Shown here: positions 1 to 24,951 of the stretch, one piece after another | How positions within the stretch are numbered: the first letter of the stretch is position 1 | How the letters are laid out: each line of letters starts with the position of its first letter | Origin: Bacteroidota bacterium | GTDB lineage: Bacteria; Bacteroidota; Ignavibacteria; UBA10030; SZUA-254 | Assembly: GCA_020056225.1 (NCBI GenBank) | Contig: JAGVIE010000054.1 | Location: 1 to 53,582, forward strand | Direction of reading: 5' to 3' | DNA: 53,582 nucleotides | Made by a program: the position numbers and the translations under genes | Notes under the pieces: model-generated | What the model was told of the DNA's origin: nothing | Database searches by the model: none | The model's input: only the letters and a program-made list of their open reading frames with translations

Positions 1-447
1 ATCTTCTTCTTCTGACTTGTTCTGCTTCCATTTCGGACTTCTCCTTTTCTCTAATATACTGGCTTTTCTCTCTGTCCGAAAATTAGGGGGAAGATCAGTG
101 CTATGGTTAATCATGGTGTTATGGTTAATCGTGATGCTATGGTTAATCATGGTGTTATGATTAATCGTAGCACCACAATTCATTGTGGTGTAATAATTAA
201 TTTAAAAATATTTATTAACCAATTTATCGGTTTATGTCTTGTTCCTTTGCGATCTTCTTGATTGTTTTTTGAAATGCTTCACTTACGTTTACTTAAGCAT
301 CGAGTGAACAAAGTATTGAGAATGATAACATTAATAGTAATAGGGTACGTTTCATATGAATATCTCTTCAAATATTCTGATTAGAATTGATATTTTGAGA
401 GTTAATATTTTCAAAAAGCAATTGTTTCCTGATGCCATAAATAAAAT
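1..447. other. Intergenic stretch downstream of the HerA gene
   Basis: No convincing gene is seen here. It holds an 18-bp tandem repeat (about 98-170) directly followed by a perfect 8-bp hairpin with a 4-nt loop (171-178 with 183-190). The rest is AT-rich. The hairpin has no T-run on either side, so it is not a classical terminator. Confidence 0.6.
98..170. repeat. 18-bp tandem repeat, four copies
   Basis: The core TATGGTTAATC recurs at 102, 120 and 138, with a one-base variant (TATGATTAATC) at 156. Copies alternate between two flavours (...CATGGTGT and ...CGTGATGC). It is non-coding, just beyond the 3' end of the defence genes. Function unknown. Confidence 0.8.
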
Positions 448-1221
448 TTACTTTTTGGCATTCTTTGATTCACCTTCATTGCTTTTGGAAGTAATCCCTT
501 GCCATTCATCAGTAATTTTTTTCCAATCAACTTTCCTTTCCTCTTTTCCTGTCCAAACATCCCAATAGGCAGGATCTTTTGATTGGGGACGTTGTTCATC
601 GGGTATTTCACTAATCTCAACAAGTATAGGAATCGGTGCAGCCCATCCCAATAAAACTGCTTTTCTTGTAGGCAATATTGGCAGCTCATTTAGAATACTA
701 CCAAGATTGTCAGGCACCAATTTCTTCACCATCTCTTGGTCTCTGTCGTTTACTAATCGGTGTAATAAGAAAGTATTGCATTGAGAAAGAACAGTTTGCG
801 ATAATTCAGATGGTCTTTGAGAAGAAAGAACAAGACCAAGCCCGAATTTTCTCCCTTCCTTTGCAATCCTTTCAAAAGATTGGCTACACAATTTTGTCGC
901 ACTAATTTCTTCTACATCGTTATCATAACGTTTGATAAAATTGTGCGCTTCTTCAACCACAAGGGTAGTCGGTAAAACTTTATTTTCTTGTCTTCGGTAT
1001 CTTTGTAATGCCTCAAAAATAATTCGACTAATTACGGAGACTACAATAAATAGTATATCAGGTGGAACGAGGGAAAGGTCTATTATAGAAATTTCTCCTT
1101 TTGCTGATTTTCCATGCCCTATATATGCTTCGAGCCATTCCTGCAGGCTGATATCCTTTTCATCTTTTGCGCCTATAACTGATGACATCCGAACATCAGA
1201 TATGATTGTTCTAACACGCAT
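448..1221 (-). CDS. HerA-type ATPase, C-terminal half (frame-broken)
   Basis: This 257-aa frame carries the C-terminal part of a HerA/FtsK-fold ATPase. It has a Walker B strand LVVEEAH (residues 87-93), the sensor-like SSQRPSELS segment (about 133-141) and the HerA C-terminal extension. It has no Walker A motif; that lies in the frame immediately upstream, which stops at a T8 run overlapping this ATG (TAATG). One extra T, or a -1 ribosomal slip, would fuse the two into about 708 aa. HerA partners SIR2 in the SIR2-HerA defence system, forming a hexameric ATPase that assembles with the NADase. What is seen is a split gene; whether it is a sequencing error, a mutation or programmed slippage cannot be decided here. 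Confidence 0.85.
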   Translation of the reverse strand: MRVRTIISDVRMSSVIGAKDEKDISLQEWLEAYIGHGKSAKGEISIIDLSLVPPDILFIVVSVISRIIFEALQRYRRQENKVLPTTLVVEEAHNFIKRYDNDVEEISATKLCSQSFERIAKEGRKFGLGLVLSSQRPSELSQTVLSQCNTFLLHRLVNDRDQEMVKKLVPDNLGSILNELPILPTRKAVLLGWAAPIPILVEISEIPDEQRPQSKDPAYWDVWTGKEERKVDWKKITDEWQGITSKSNEGESKNAKK

Positions 1222-1232
1222 TAAAAAAAATC
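1219..1232 (-). other. T8 slippery run at the HerA frame break
   Basis: The minus strand reads ATG GAT TTT TTT TAA TGC, with eight consecutive T (A8 at 1223-1230 on the plus strand). A -1 slip or one inserted T turns the stop into TTA ATG CGT and joins both HerA halves in frame. Such runs are typical both of indel errors and of transcriptional or ribosomal slippage sites. Confidence 0.8.
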
Positions 1233-2573
1233 CATGAACTGCGAAGCACTTGATTCTTTTGATAGTCTTTCTAGATGACTTATAAAATCTTCGTCTTTGA
1301 AATATATTGGATTATCTTCATCAGGACCTTCGTATGCAATTATGCCACCTATAGTTGCTAAAAATCCTTCAATATAAGCGACAGATTTCACTACTTCATC
1401 TTTTGTGAAATCATCATAATATTCAATCTCTTCTTTTTTATCATTTAAGAATATTTTGTGTTTTTTATTTGAGAGTGATAATAATTCATTGGCTAATTTA
1501 GTTAAACGCTCATTCAATACTGTAACAGAATATTTTTCTCCCGAATCTTTTAACGCATCATCTGAAATACTCTTTAACTTTTTTCCAAAGTCATTCTTTC
1601 CCGGTTTTCCCTTGAAAGCTGGTGCACCTAGATGAAGATCATTCATTAATTCTATCGCACAGCTAGAATAATACCTTCTCAAAGAATTGATTTCTTCAGA
1701 ATATGAACTGTCGGATCCTGCACGTAATTCACGAAGAGCACGTCGAAGCAAAGGTCTTTGCGTCCTAACACTTGCTTGTGCAATAGAACTCCATTCATAA
1801 CTATTCCACATCCAAACAGGCACCTTAAGTTGTTCAGCTACGGAAGATTCTGAACCAAGCTTGACTTGAAACTTCTTTATGTCACATAATCCATCAAACG
1901 AATTCGTGTATTCACCGTTAGGATCTAGTACAATAAAGCGAGCATTACAATTCTTGCCATCTTCAATTTCTTTTTGTGCTGTTTCAAGTGACCATCGCAC
2001 AAGTCCAGCGACCGAACAGGATTTACCACTGCCAGTATTTCCAAGAATCGCAATATGTCGCCCGAATACTCTATCAGGATTTACAAAAACTGGGGCGTTT
2101 GCTGCAAGCGGAGAAACGCCTATTTTGACTCGAGCATTTTCATCCTTATTTTGAACTATCGCACGTAATTGATCTTGATCCGGTATTATTGCAATATCAC
2201 CAACTGACGGATAACTGTAAACTCCTCTTTCAATTTCAAAAGTCCCCTTTGTTTCCTTCAATATCCCAAGAGGACTTAATGAAAGCTTACGCAAAGGAAA
2301 AGGCAAATCAATTAAATCATAATCTTTATAACCCTGTCGTTGTGGATATCGTGAATATTCTATTCCAATCCATGATATCATTCCAATAAGCGCACCCGCT
2401 TCATTTGGAATCAGAATAAAGCCATTTACTTTTGGGAAAAGAGTTGGTTGACCGGTGTTAATTGCCGTATTTTGTGGAGCATAAATATCTAAGAGAATTT
2501 TTATTTCCCTAGGAGAAACATATTCAACTGTACCAATGACCTGATTCCTAACGTAATCAAATTCATTGCTCAT
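1221..2573 (-). CDS. HerA-type ATPase, N-terminal half with Walker A
   Basis: 450 aa. Residues 1-150 form a beta-rich HAS-barrel-like domain typical of HerA. The P-loop GNTGSGKS is at 178-185, followed by the LDPNGEY strand characteristic of HerA ATPases. The frame ends abruptly at a TAA inside a T8 run, before Walker B, and the missing half continues in the next frame. The start ATG overlaps the stop of the SIR2 gene by 4 nt (ATGA), indicating translational coupling. HerA-family ATPases use ATP to translocate DNA; in SIR2-HerA systems the ATPase gates or enhances the NADase and may add nuclease activity. Family assignment is strong. Activity of the split product is uncertain. Confidence 0.88.
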   Translation of the reverse strand: MSNEFDYVRNQVIGTVEYVSPREIKILLDIYAPQNTAINTGQPTLFPKVNGFILIPNEAGALIGMISWIGIEYSRYPQRQGYKDYDLIDLPFPLRKLSLSPLGILKETKGTFEIERGVYSYPSVGDIAIIPDQDQLRAIVQNKDENARVKIGVSPLAANAPVFVNPDRVFGRHIAILGNTGSGKSCSVAGLVRWSLETAQKEIEDGKNCNARFIVLDPNGEYTNSFDGLCDIKKFQVKLGSESSVAEQLKVPVWMWNSYEWSSIAQASVRTQRPLLRRALRELRAGSDSSYSEEINSLRRYYSSCAIELMNDLHLGAPAFKGKPGKNDFGKKLKSISDDALKDSGEKYSVTVLNERLTKLANELLSLSNKKHKIFLNDKKEEIEYYDDFTKDEVVKSVAYIEGFLATIGGIIAYEGPDEDNPIYFKDEDFISHLERLSKESSASQFMDFF

Positions 2574-3841
2574 GATTCTTCCTCTTTCACATTTAAGTTC
2601 TGTTTTTCGCCTCTTTTTTCATCAATCTTATGCTTCCTCTCAGTAATTCTATCTATGGCTGCCTTTGGCAAATAGTTATCAACCAGTGTCGTAAAATCAG
2701 CAAAGTGATTTCCAATCAATAGTGTCAACTGTGATGGATTACAACTTTTAATAAAATTAGTTAAACGATCATCCGCATGTCCATAAGAGATGATAACAAG
2801 ATGCGTTGACGGAGTTGTGAGCATATCATGAATAATTTGGTTGATATGTGAATCGCCGAAGCCATAGCCGTATGTTACCAAGACAGAATTCGGTCTGCAA
2901 ATTGCGGCCGAAAAATCTCGGAATAATTCCGAATATGGATAAAAGACGGTTTCTATTCCTTTTGCCGAATTGGGAAAAATAACTGTCGTATCAAGTGGAT
3001 TTTTAATTTCATCTGTTGTCTTTTTATCGGGTCCAAATTGAAGTGGTACTCTTGATATAATTTTTCCATCCATCTTCCAATCGAGAGATCCATGAAGCTT
3101 TGTATATCGTACAACACCTTCGACGTAACGAGGTTCACCTCGAATTCCTGGTGGATTGTAATGATAATCTAATTCCACCTTATTAGTTCTGAATATGGGT
3201 TTTATCTTACCAACAAAGCGATCAATTGTAAAGATACTTGCTAGATCAAGTGCATATTCAATAAATCTATCATAGTTCGTTGTAAATATCTGTAGACGAT
3301 CCCTTGTAGCGGTACGGCTTGCAAAACTTATTAGAAAACGTTTAAGCGTTTTAATCGCAACTTCATAATTACTTGACGTTAGTATGTTGGACTCATTTTG
3401 CAACAATTCTTTTATCAGAGTTATCAAATGTACATTGAGTTCATCCTTGAGAGATGTTGATTGAGATTTATTTAGAATTAGCAATCCCTTGAGTAATTCA
3501 ATAGCAACGCGAAAATCATCCTCAAAATTAGCATTCCCTCTGCCCATTTCTTTTGCTTGATTGTCGGCATTAGTTTTTATTGGATCTTTATAGCTATCGA
3601 ATTCAATGCGAGCCATACTTTTTGGATCGTTGCCCGTGGCAAGCTTGCAAACAGCTGTCGTCAAGCCTGTACCTGTCAATAATGCCAAATGCTCACTTTG
3701 AAAAACAGCAGTTAACCATGGCTCAATGATCCGTCGCAGCTCGTTAATATTATTTTTGGGGTCTGCTGTATATTTAGAGTGTATCTCATTCGCGATCCAA
3801 AGAATATGCTCTTTCTTAAAATCGATGTAATCCATTTTCAA
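2570..3841 (-). CDS. SIR2-domain NADase of a SIR2-HerA defence system
   Basis: 423 aa. The SIR2-like fold is shown by the nucleotide-binding GTGLT (57-61), TTNYD (187-191), the putative catalytic histidine in KLHGS (H250) and GYGFGDSHIN (325-334). The region between 70 and 180 is helical and not a canonical deacetylase insert. Proteins of this type in defence operons deplete NAD+ on phage sensing rather than deacetylate. The gene precedes and overlaps the HerA gene by 4 nt, the standard SIR2-HerA (Nezha) arrangement. A purine-rich AAAGGA lies about 8 nt upstream of the chosen ATG. The family call is firm; the anti-phage role is inferred from the known two-gene system. Confidence 0.88.
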   Translation of the reverse strand: MKMDYIDFKKEHILWIANEIHSKYTADPKNNINELRRIIEPWLTAVFQSEHLALLTGTGLTTAVCKLATGNDPKSMARIEFDSYKDPIKTNADNQAKEMGRGNANFEDDFRVAIELLKGLLILNKSQSTSLKDELNVHLITLIKELLQNESNILTSSNYEVAIKTLKRFLISFASRTATRDRLQIFTTNYDRFIEYALDLASIFTIDRFVGKIKPIFRTNKVELDYHYNPPGIRGEPRYVEGVVRYTKLHGSLDWKMDGKIISRVPLQFGPDKKTTDEIKNPLDTTVIFPNSAKGIETVFYPYSELFRDFSAAICRPNSVLVTYGYGFGDSHINQIIHDMLTTPSTHLVIISYGHADDRLTNFIKSCNPSQLTLLIGNHFADFTTLVDNYLPKAAIDRITERKHKIDEKRGEKQNLNVKEEES

Positions 3842-17397: not shown

Positions 17398-17784
17398 TTA
17401 TTTAGAATCGAGTAAAGCGTTCACTCGATTTTCAATCTGCTCAACGTCGATCGGTTTTCGTAATATTCCGAAGACACCGATTTTCCGCGCCTCTGCAAGA
17501 ACGCGTTCATCTTGAAAACCGGTAATAAATAAAAATGGTATCGATGCTGTCTCAGGCGACAATTTTAACTTCTTGAACATCTCGAAGCCGCTCATCCGCG
17601 GCATCACAATATCAGAGATAATAACATCCGGTTTGAAAGTCTGCACTTTCTCGATCCCTTCAACTCCGTCGTATGCAACGTCGACTTCATAGTGATCCAT
17701 TATGAGGAGATCGCGAAGTAATTCCGCAAATCCAACCTCATCATCTACCAACAATATCTTGCTCAACTTATTTTCTTTTGTCAT
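17398..17784 (-). CDS. Single-domain response regulator
   Basis: 128 aa, receiver domain only. Acidic pair D14-D15, phosphoacceptor D58, Thr88 and Lys110 are all in place. There is no output domain, so it acts as a CheY-like relay or protein-interaction switch. It lies upstream of the KinB-like kinase on the same strand with a 233-bp gap. Confidence 0.93.
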   Translation of the reverse strand: MTKENKLSKILLVDDEVGFAELLRDLLIMDHYEVDVAYDGVEGIEKVQTFKPDVIISDIVMPRMSGFEMFKKLKLSPETASIPFLFITGFQDERVLAEARKIGVFGILRKPIDVEQIENRVNALLDSK

Positions 17785-23516: not shown

Positions 23517-24239
23517 TCATTTTCCAAAAATAGTTTTTAATGTGTGTATATTGGTCTTGGTGGATCTAATTTCCTGATAAAGGATCATGTGCCTGTGTAT
23601 CATTTGATGGCAATTCGGACAAAGTAAAGCAATGTTGTCAATTGTGTTTGCCATAGAATCATTTATCTTACTCACGGGCATAATATGATGACCCTGAATA
23701 ATACTATCTCCATATTTTCTCTCGTTAGAAAAATTAAAATTACATATTTCGCAGTACAAGAAACCATGTTTCCCCCGGAATTCTTTTTTTGCAAGCGGTA
23801 TTATTTTCGAGTTTCGCTCTCTAATAAGATGAGAAACAAGTTCTTGTTTTCCCTCAAAATATGTTTCTGTCGGAGCATTAACAATAGAATCGAGATCAAC
23901 GTCAGAACACATTTCCAAACCATTGATCGAACGTTTAATGTATTCTTTAGCAAAACCATATAAATACACTTCGTTCTTAGTATCAATAACCTTATGCGTT
24001 TTTAAAAGTTCAAATGTAGTTGCTTCTATTTTCTTGGGATTGATTTTATAAAATCCTTCAATAACTATGGATATTTTTTTATAATTCAAACTACTTGGGG
24101 TTTTTGCATTGGTTGGACTTATTTTAATACAGTTATTGAGAATGTCGGTAATTTTATAACGACTTTTACCACCTCCGGAATAAATAATTTCACCCGTATT
24201 AAAATAACTTTGGATGTCTATTTGATTAAGATATTTCAT
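23517..24239 (-). CDS. HNH endonuclease
   Basis: 240 aa from the ATG at 24239, 4 nt after the previous stop; an upstream start would overlap that gene by 44 nt. The C-terminal HNH domain is complete: zinc cysteines C163/C166 and C207/C210, catalytic HH (184-185), Asn202 and His211/His215. The N-terminal 150 residues are not recognised and may bind DNA or sense a signal. It lies in an accessory segment bounded by attC-like sequences, so a defence or mobile role is plausible but not proven. Confidence 0.82.
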   Translation of the reverse strand: MKYLNQIDIQSYFNTGEIIYSGGGKSRYKITDILNNCIKISPTNAKTPSSLNYKKISIVIEGFYKINPKKIEATTFELLKTHKVIDTKNEVYLYGFAKEYIKRSINGLEMCSDVDLDSIVNAPTETYFEGKQELVSHLIRERNSKIIPLAKKEFRGKHGFLYCEICNFNFSNERKYGDSIIQGHHIMPVSKINDSMANTIDNIALLCPNCHQMIHRHMILYQEIRSTKTNIHTLKTIFGK

Positions 24240-24243
24240 AGTA

Positions 24244-24951
24244 TTATTTGGAGAGTTGTGTAGCGTGTTCAGTCGCGGTTTTTGCAAACGTCCAGATTAC
24301 ATTTAGCCCTTCATCACGGAAAATCTGTTCTTCTCCATCTTTATCTTTTTGAATTGGAATACGATATTTTTCTTGAAAGGGTCTCAAAGTGGGATATCGA
24401 TTTAGAGGTGATCTACCAAATTGGTATTTCAAATCCGCGAATTTTTTTTCGAAACCACCATTCATATTAGCTACTTCATCTGGTTTCAACGTTTCGTTCC
24501 AAAACGTTGATGCATCAACATACGCATCAAGAGCAGTCTTCATATTGGTTTTTAATTCTCCGTCTTTAAGTTCAATAAGGGCTTCCTCGACAGATGATTT
24601 TAGATCAATAACACGAGTGCTATATTCTTTGAAACTAATTCCAACTTCGGTGGCTCCAGCAAATTTGCGCAATTCTTTAAGCGCGGACTTAATTGTTTCG
24701 GATAATGGGGGTACTACAATTATGGAATCTCCAGTGAATTCCCAAGTTCCATCAGTATTAAGTAATACAATCTGCCCACTTTTAGTCGTCGCAGTTATTG
24801 GTTTTTCAATAATTAAAGATTTTTTAAGAACGCTTTCTTGTTTTTTAGCAACGCTCTCTTGTTTTTTTGATTTATTTTGGGAATGCAAAGGTTCACACGT
24901 AATAAAAAAGCTATTTGTTATTAATAGTACAAAGATAACTAATGTGCGCAT
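24244..24951 (-). CDS. Exported protein of unknown function
   Basis: 235 aa with a signal peptide (residues 1-24; a Cys at 19 is not in a good lipobox). The segment TKSGQIVLLNTDGTWEF (57-73) resembles the small beta-domain 'GQKVLLNDDGTW' found in many Bacteroidota envelope proteins. The rest is helical and charged. It is 4 nt upstream of the HNH gene, so the two are probably co-transcribed. Function not recognised. Confidence 0.7.
   Translation of the reverse strand: MRTLVIFVLLITNSFFITCEPLHSQNKSKKQESVAKKQESVLKKSLIIEKPITATTKSGQIVLLNTDGTWEFTGDSIIVVPPLSETIKSALKELRKFAGATEVGISFKEYSTRVIDLKSSVEEALIELKDGELKTNMKTALDAYVDASTFWNETLKPDEVANMNGGFEKKFADLKYQFGRSPLNRYPTLRPFQEKYRIPIQKDKDGEEQIFRDEGLNVIWTFAKTATEHATQLSK

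What the first reader, a model, noticed from the sequence alone, without database searches (positions are those of the whole stretch)
448..3841. SIR2-HerA defence pair with HerA split at a T8 run
The SIR2 NADase and HerA ATPase are adjacent and overlap by 4 nt, as in the known SIR2-HerA system. HerA is broken into an N-terminal half with Walker A and a C-terminal half with Walker B. The break is a run of eight T on the coding strand, where one extra T or a -1 slip restores a ~708-aa protein. All motifs on both sides are intact, with no sign of decay, and the second half has an ATG overlapping the stop. This fits either a sequencing indel or a slippage-controlled defence gene; the latter would be a new form of dosage control.
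Basis: partly seen in the sequence, partly recalled or inferred. Interest (0 to 1): 0.75.

Follow-up and report, generated by a model that had tools for sequence, protein, structure and literature searches.

The report
Frameshifted HerA in SIR2-HerA defence pair
This is an ordinary bacterial anti-phage gene pair (SIR2-HerA) whose second gene is broken in this one assembly by a one-base frame slip at a run of eight T's, and no relative that could be read at that place has the run or the break, so it looks like a private mutation or an assembly slip rather than a new kind of gene control.

Summary
On the minus strand a SIR2 gene (3835-2570) overlaps HerA by 4 nt. HerA is split into a 450-aa half (2573-1221, Walker A) and a 257-aa half (1221-448, EEAH motif) at a T8 run (1230-1223). 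Both halves match consecutive parts of one PADLOC HerA model.

Slippage control is not supported by comparison. In 91 of 94 related loci HerA runs through the junction in one frame; the exceptions are a contig end, a truncation and a break elsewhere. In 91 readable junctions the longest T run is 6. The ATG overlapping the stop is an inherited codon (Met in 47 of 91). No RNA structure follows the run. A relative's model puts the break inside a helix.

In an 816-kb sample of the same genome, HerA's is the only one of 60 A/T runs of 8 or more in predicted genes flagged as a split. But a second gene, conserved in relatives, is split at an A7 run, which favours an assembly error somewhat.

Best reading: a private, probably inactivating frameshift in an ordinary SIR2-HerA operon, with an assembly error almost as likely. 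Leaky rescue by slippage is possible but unshown.

The parts
2570..3835 (-). SIR2-family NADase gene (ATG at 3835; the ORF list gives a TTG at 3841)
   Evidence: PDLC04079 SIR2 E 4.4e-168; Pfam SIR2_2 E 6e-12; TTNYD and KLHGS motifs, N189/H250 in the 423-aa numbering, N in 89 and H in 89 of 90 relatives with a SIR2 hit, the other alignment not reaching the columns
1221..2573 (-). HerA N-terminal half, 450 aa, Walker A GNTGSGKS, ends at TAA right after the T run
   Evidence: Pfam DUF87 E 3.4e-18; PDLC04098 positions 1-441
448..1221 (-). HerA C-terminal half, 257 aa, EEAH (Walker B type, name recalled) and SQRP motifs, in the other frame
   Evidence: PDLC04098 positions 445-684; no Pfam hit at 0.001; motif columns conserved in relatives
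1223..1230 (-). run of eight T on the coding strand where the frame is offset by one base
   Evidence: longest T run 6 in 91 of 91 readable related junctions, 42 nt examined in each
1221..1223 (-). TAA stop of the N half, overlapping by one base the ATG of the C half
   Evidence: the ATG column is Met in 47 and Leu in 20 of 91 relatives

Best explanation
This is an ordinary SIR2-HerA (Nezha-type) anti-phage operon in which HerA carries a private one-base frame offset at a T8 run. The ancestor most likely encoded the common family sequence DFFL-MRVR here with an unusually long T run, and replication slippage changed its length. Ribosomes now stop at the run and give a HerA that lacks EEAH and the rest of the C-terminal core. 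The HerA that SIR2 needs as partner should then not form, so the system should be off, or nearly off if slippage leaks some full-length product. Shown: the architecture, the frame offset, its absence in relatives, and no further lesion in the three frames. Inferred: that the run has this length in the living cell, the replication-slippage origin, and the loss of function.
For: Both halves fit one HerA model end to end. HerA passes the junction in one frame in 91 of 94 related loci. Junction T runs are 1 to 6 in 91 loci, and L040 and L041 encode exactly DFFL-MRVR with T runs of 5. The overlapping ATG is an inherited codon. The matching residue of a relative's model (L037, M445) lies inside helix 437-452. 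A/T runs of 9 or more are depleted in this genome's genes (A 5 observed vs 36.1 in synonymous shuffles; T 1 vs 8.6). HerA's is the only one of 60 runs of 8 or more flagged as a split. Damaged copies occur in relatives: a frame break elsewhere in Sporomusa acidovorans L045 and two fragments with stops in G258. In V. cholerae, deleting herA raised plaquing by three of the phages named, and the authors read HerA as required for immunity (PMC11559045, passages seen).
Against: No reads and no second strain were available, so an assembly error cannot be told from a mutation. A second gene in the sample, conserved in relatives, is also split at a homopolymer (A7), which fits errors at runs. SIR2 and both HerA halves show no further damage, which fits a very recent break, an error, or a gene still expressed by slippage.
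Confidence: 0.5

Rival explanations
1. Assembly or sequencing error: the organism's run has another length and HerA is intact.
For: A homopolymer, every other feature intact; one frame through the junction in 91 of 94 relatives. A second gene of the same assembly (C7:148665-149688) is split at an A7 run although 34 of 40 genomes searched (own included) hold a relative and three relatives read it as one frame of 315-320 codons.
Against: Of 60 A/T runs of 8 or more in predicted genes of the 816-kb sample only HerA's is flagged, so most long runs are assembled in frame. Another A8-bearing gene in the window (24244-24951) is a complete separate gene in two relatives.
Confidence: 0.37
2. Leaky rescue: transcriptional slippage on the T8 run, or a -1 ribosomal slip on U UUU UUU before the UAA, makes some full-length HerA, so the system works at reduced dose. 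This is adventitious rather than evolved control and can hold together with a real mutation.
For: T8 directly at the junction. Precedents: poly-A rescue of tssM1, about 20-25% (PMC4256274, passages); the U run of mxiE, and the human apoB A8 run giving about a tenth full-length product (both described in PMC1088944, section 4 read). A/T runs of 8 and above are depleted in this genome's genes, most strongly from 9 on, as expected if slippage there has a cost.
Against: No conserved two-ORF organisation in relatives, the criterion used in PMC1088944. The 83 nt after the run fold no better than shuffles (z -0.04). No expression data.
Confidence: 0.13
3. Programmed or phase-variable control: the T run is a selected on/off or dosage switch.
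For: Run, stop and downstream frame sit together.
Against: No T run above 6 in 91 readable relatives and no break at this place in the loci compared; long runs are depleted in this genome's genes.
Confidence: 0.03
4. Two-subunit HerA: termination-reinitiation at TAATG makes both halves, which assemble.
For: The stop and ATG overlap by one base; a GGA lies nine bases upstream of the ATG (read).
Against: The ATG is an inherited codon (Met in 47 of 91). The break falls inside a helix in a relative's model. None of the 94 loci is split at this place, though two (L046, L050) do not reach it.
Confidence: 0.04

Closest known systems
SIR2-HerA (Nezha) anti-phage system; PADLOC PDLC04079 and PDLC04098; solved complexes 8wld and 8j4u
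   Same: SIR2 followed by HerA on one strand, 4-nt overlap (the commonest spacing by nearest start codon, 47 of 90 relatives), NADase dyad and HerA motifs present, and the fold of a relative's HerA ranks 8wld, a SIR2/HerA complex, first (TM 0.61 by query length)
   Different: HerA is interrupted by a one-base frame offset at a T8 run in this assembly
Citrobacter rodentium tssM1, poly-A transcriptional slippage (PMC4256274, passages seen)
   Same: A homopolymer run close to a premature stop, with the rest of the gene intact downstream
   Different: A11 rather than T8, 28 nt before the stop, with protein and RNA evidence there; here no expression data
Genes interrupted at long A/T runs whose homologues are single ORFs, in the genome survey PMC1088944 (sections 4 and 5 read)
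   Same: Relatives encode the product in a single ORF and slippage could restore it
   Different: That survey searched runs of nine; the conserved two-ORF arrangement that it took as a sign of function is absent here

Membership tests
SIR2-HerA (Nezha) | SIR2-family protein with Asn/His NADase residues | tested here: met
   PDLC04079 E 4.4e-168; N and H columns, 89 of 90 each; matching residues named in PMC11263360 and PMC11559045 (passages), the match being by motif
SIR2-HerA (Nezha) | HerA-type DUF87 ATPase with Walker A and Walker B | tested here: met
   Both motifs present and conserved, but in different frames
SIR2-HerA (Nezha) | Adjacent co-directional genes, SIR2 first | tested here: met
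   4-nt overlap; 90 of 94 related loci have a SIR2 hit, all 90 on the HerA strand; in the other four the locus begins at or just before HerA
SIR2-HerA (Nezha) | HerA encoded as one continuous protein | tested here: not met
   Frame offset at 1230-1223 in the sequence as given; filed as a broken copy, not an intact member
SIR2-HerA (Nezha) | SIR2 dodecamer-HerA hexamer complex with NADase activity, phage defence | not testable with these tools
   Needs protein and phage assays
[quoted passage not shown]
   No T run above 6 in 91 readable junctions and no break at this place
Programmed -1 ribosomal frameshift | Slippery heptamer plus stimulatory structure | tested here: inconclusive
   U UUU UUU before UAA is present; the 83 nt downstream fold no better than shuffles (z -0.04); pseudoknots and upstream elements not tested

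The most novel reading that the evidence does not exclude
The T8 run is real, and polymerase or ribosome slippage on it makes a minority of full-length HerA, so an NADase defence system is kept at low dose by a slippery site that arose only in this lineage.
Probability: 0.1. Interest if true: 0.5.

Novelty: new member of a known kind. Interest (0 to 1): 0.14.

Why it matters
As it stands it is one more SIR2-HerA operon with a broken HerA, useful mainly as a caution: a gene split at a homopolymer looks like recoding until relatives are compared. If slippage rescue were shown, it would be a case of limiting the dose of a costly defence system by an accidental slippery site.

Tried and rejected
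Programmed slippage: not supported by comparison with 94 loci. A downstream frameshift-stimulating structure: none found in 83 nt. A second copy of the gene in the genome: one close match, the window itself, plus a weak HerA relative in contig C4 at 33% identity. A general homopolymer problem in the assembly: at runs of 8 or more only HerA is flagged; at runs of 7 there are six candidates. Four of them carry separate genes by Pfam, or no family on the short side (L123 twice, L150 at 2676, L163). One pair of short frames (L150 at 19309) was not tested. One (L162) is a true split. Candidates at runs of 5 and 6 (29 in the first half of the sample) were not tested by homology, so the overall frameshift rate is not known. 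Four other genes with long runs near their 3' ends show no obvious continuing frame or end just before another gene (my reading, no homology test). A second split at the HNH pair 23517-24951: not supported, since the upstream gene is complete in two relatives. Plasmid records: 203 of 72,556 hold a match at 60-80% identity, none covering 80% of the query. Viral contigs: 6 loci, all one frame. Rfam on the window: no match at gathering score. Promoter and terminator scans: no more than in shuffles. Papers: SIR2-HerA with frameshift gave 4 papers; in the one opened (PMC11559045) the word refers to a phage gene, and the other three were seen only in the listing, as were the papers not named here. 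Two structural papers (PMC11514289, PMC11472057) are not held.

Rows left out before counts: of the loci fetched by the genome search, L001/L035 (the window itself), L002, L004-L021 (distant HerA relatives) and L029-L034, L036 (partial family matches, including the damaged G258 pair) were not in the 94. L028 had no readable junction position, and L046 and L050 have no C half, which leaves 91 junctions. Some of the 94 are near duplicates (for example L097/L098).

Full report
What is there. The minus strand of the window's first 4 kb encodes a SIR2-family protein (3835-2570) and, overlapping it by 4 nt, a HerA ATPase in two pieces (2573-1221 and 1221-448). PADLOC's best model for the first is SIR2 PDLC04079 and for both pieces HerA PDLC04098 (positions 1-441 and 445-684 of 686). 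Pfam finds SIR2_2 in the first and DUF87 in the N half. The break is at eight T on the coding strand (1230-1223), followed by AA, which gives TAA in the upstream frame and ATG in the downstream frame. The window is the whole of contig C6 of a 3.5-Mb, 62-contig assembly, so the operon ends about 450 bases from a contig end.

Relatives. I compared 94 related loci: eight from whole genomes, 80 from genome contigs, the best of 550, and six from viral contigs. HerA passes the junction in one open frame in 91 of 94 (in a few, such as L027 and L047, the contig ends within the C half). The exceptions are L046 (contig ends), L050 (frame ends after the part aligned to residue 335, no C half in the rest of the contig) and L045 from Sporomusa acidovorans (a frame break at about residue 381, not at this site). 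Of the 92 loci with a C half, 91 gave readable junction codons. The longest T run there is 1 to 6, never 7 or more. L040 and L041 encode DFFL then MRVR, as the window does when its upstream and downstream frames are read on either side of the run, with T runs of 5; L047 and L048 encode DYFL-MRVK with T6. The closest full-length relative found is L037 (59% over the N half, 72% over most of the C half), so nothing close enough to date the break was available. The 4-nt SIR2/HerA overlap is the commonest spacing (47 of 90, taking the start codon nearest to the SIR2 stop).

Integrity of the parts. The SIR2 Asn and His (189 and 250 in the 423-aa numbering) are conserved in 89 of 90 relatives with a SIR2 hit, the remaining alignment not reaching them. 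By motif they match the catalytic residues named in PMC11263360 and PMC11559045 (passages); that match is my inference. HerA's Walker A lysine is K in 94 of 94, the second E of EEAH is E in 92 of 92, and the first is E in 86 and D in 6. By sequence the proteins match solved SIR2-HerA and HerA complexes. An AlphaFold2 model of the L037 HerA (mean pLDDT 79.6; 89 in residues 441-450) ranks 8wld, a SIR2/HerA complex, first (TM 0.61 by query length, rmsd 12.5). The residue matching the junction, M445, lies inside helix 437-452, between Walker A (178) and EEAH (533). The split is therefore in the body of the protein, not at a linker between domains.

Is the assembly to blame? I sampled 815,846 bases of the same genome (window included, 23%). 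In 506 predicted genes there are 60 A/T runs of 8 or more, HerA's included, and the split test flags HerA's alone (a first sample of 415,846 bases gave the same). The test needs at least 80 open codons on both sides and would miss breaks near gene ends. At runs of 7 it flags six places. Four are separate genes by Pfam or have no family on the short side, one was not tested, and one is a true split: C7:148665-149688, where frames of 184 and 165 codons meet at an A7 run and match consecutive parts (1-158 and 157-320) of a single frame of 315-320 codons in three relatives. Its upstream half has relatives in 34 of 40 genomes searched, own included. So long runs are mostly assembled in frame, but homopolymer splits are not unique to HerA. 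Two splits in about 500 genes could be ordinary pseudogenes or two errors; a broken copy of a widely held gene leans a little towards error.

Is slippage likely in this organism? Against synonymous shuffles of the same genes, A runs of 9 or more are seen 5 times where 36.1 are expected and T runs of 9 or more once where 8.6 are expected; runs of 8 are milder (A 42 vs 68.1, T 12 vs 19.9). This is the kind of depletion that PMC1088944 takes as a sign of a cost of slippage (sections 4 and 5 read); replication slippage would give it too. So a T8 run could leak some full-length HerA. [quoted passage not shown] No RNA structure better than shuffles follows the run (z -0.04).

Mechanism and verdict. 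In V. cholerae, deletion of herA raised plaquing and SIR2 active-site mutations abolished immunity (PMC11559045, passages). A review passage describes a SIR2 dodecamer with a HerA hexamer, and HerA binding that opens the SIR2 pocket in the S. aureus system (PMC12198126). A HerA cut before EEAH should therefore leave SIR2 without its partner (inference). I conclude: an ordinary SIR2-HerA operon with a private frame offset, somewhat more likely a real and recent inactivating mutation at an unstable run than an assembly error, with leaky rescue as an untested possibility. Interest is low.

Noticed in passing
L162 8665-9688, minus strand (G000:C7:148665-149688): A second gene of the same genome split at a homopolymer (A7): frames of 184 and 165 codons match consecutive parts of one 315-320-codon frame in three relatives; the upstream half has a weak ArgZ-like Rossmann match (PF21570, E 2.2e-6).
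   Followed up: partly
window 98-168: Near the contig end, an 18-bp unit repeated about 3.8 times (36-bp unit 1.9 times); it may be why the contig stops here.
   Followed up: no
window 23517-24951, minus strand: HNH endonuclease gene (weak type IV restriction match, PDLC03656) overlapping by 44 nt an unnamed 235-aa gene that carries an A8 run; 3 of 296 genomes of the phylum searched, the window's own included, have the unnamed gene, in open frames of 221-248 codons. Possible small restriction pair.
   Followed up: partly
window 17398-17784, minus strand: 128-aa protein with weak matches to the defence proteins SduA (DUF4263; model positions 3-65 of 323) and PD-T4-6.
   Followed up: no
L045 around 2558-2712: HerA of Sporomusa acidovorans has its own frame break, at about residue 381 of the N half, another private lesion.
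   Followed up: partly
L029 and L036 (G258 contig 22): Two HerA C-half fragments with stops counted inside, about 3 kb apart in one genome: probably decayed copies.
   Followed up: no
L050 5900-6145: HerA in a Desulfobacteraceae MAG ends after the part aligned to residue 335, with no C half in the remaining bases of the locus: truncation or rearrangement.
   Followed up: no
genome G000, 816-kb sample: A/T runs of 9 or more are depleted several-fold in coding sequence against synonymous shuffles.
   Followed up: yes
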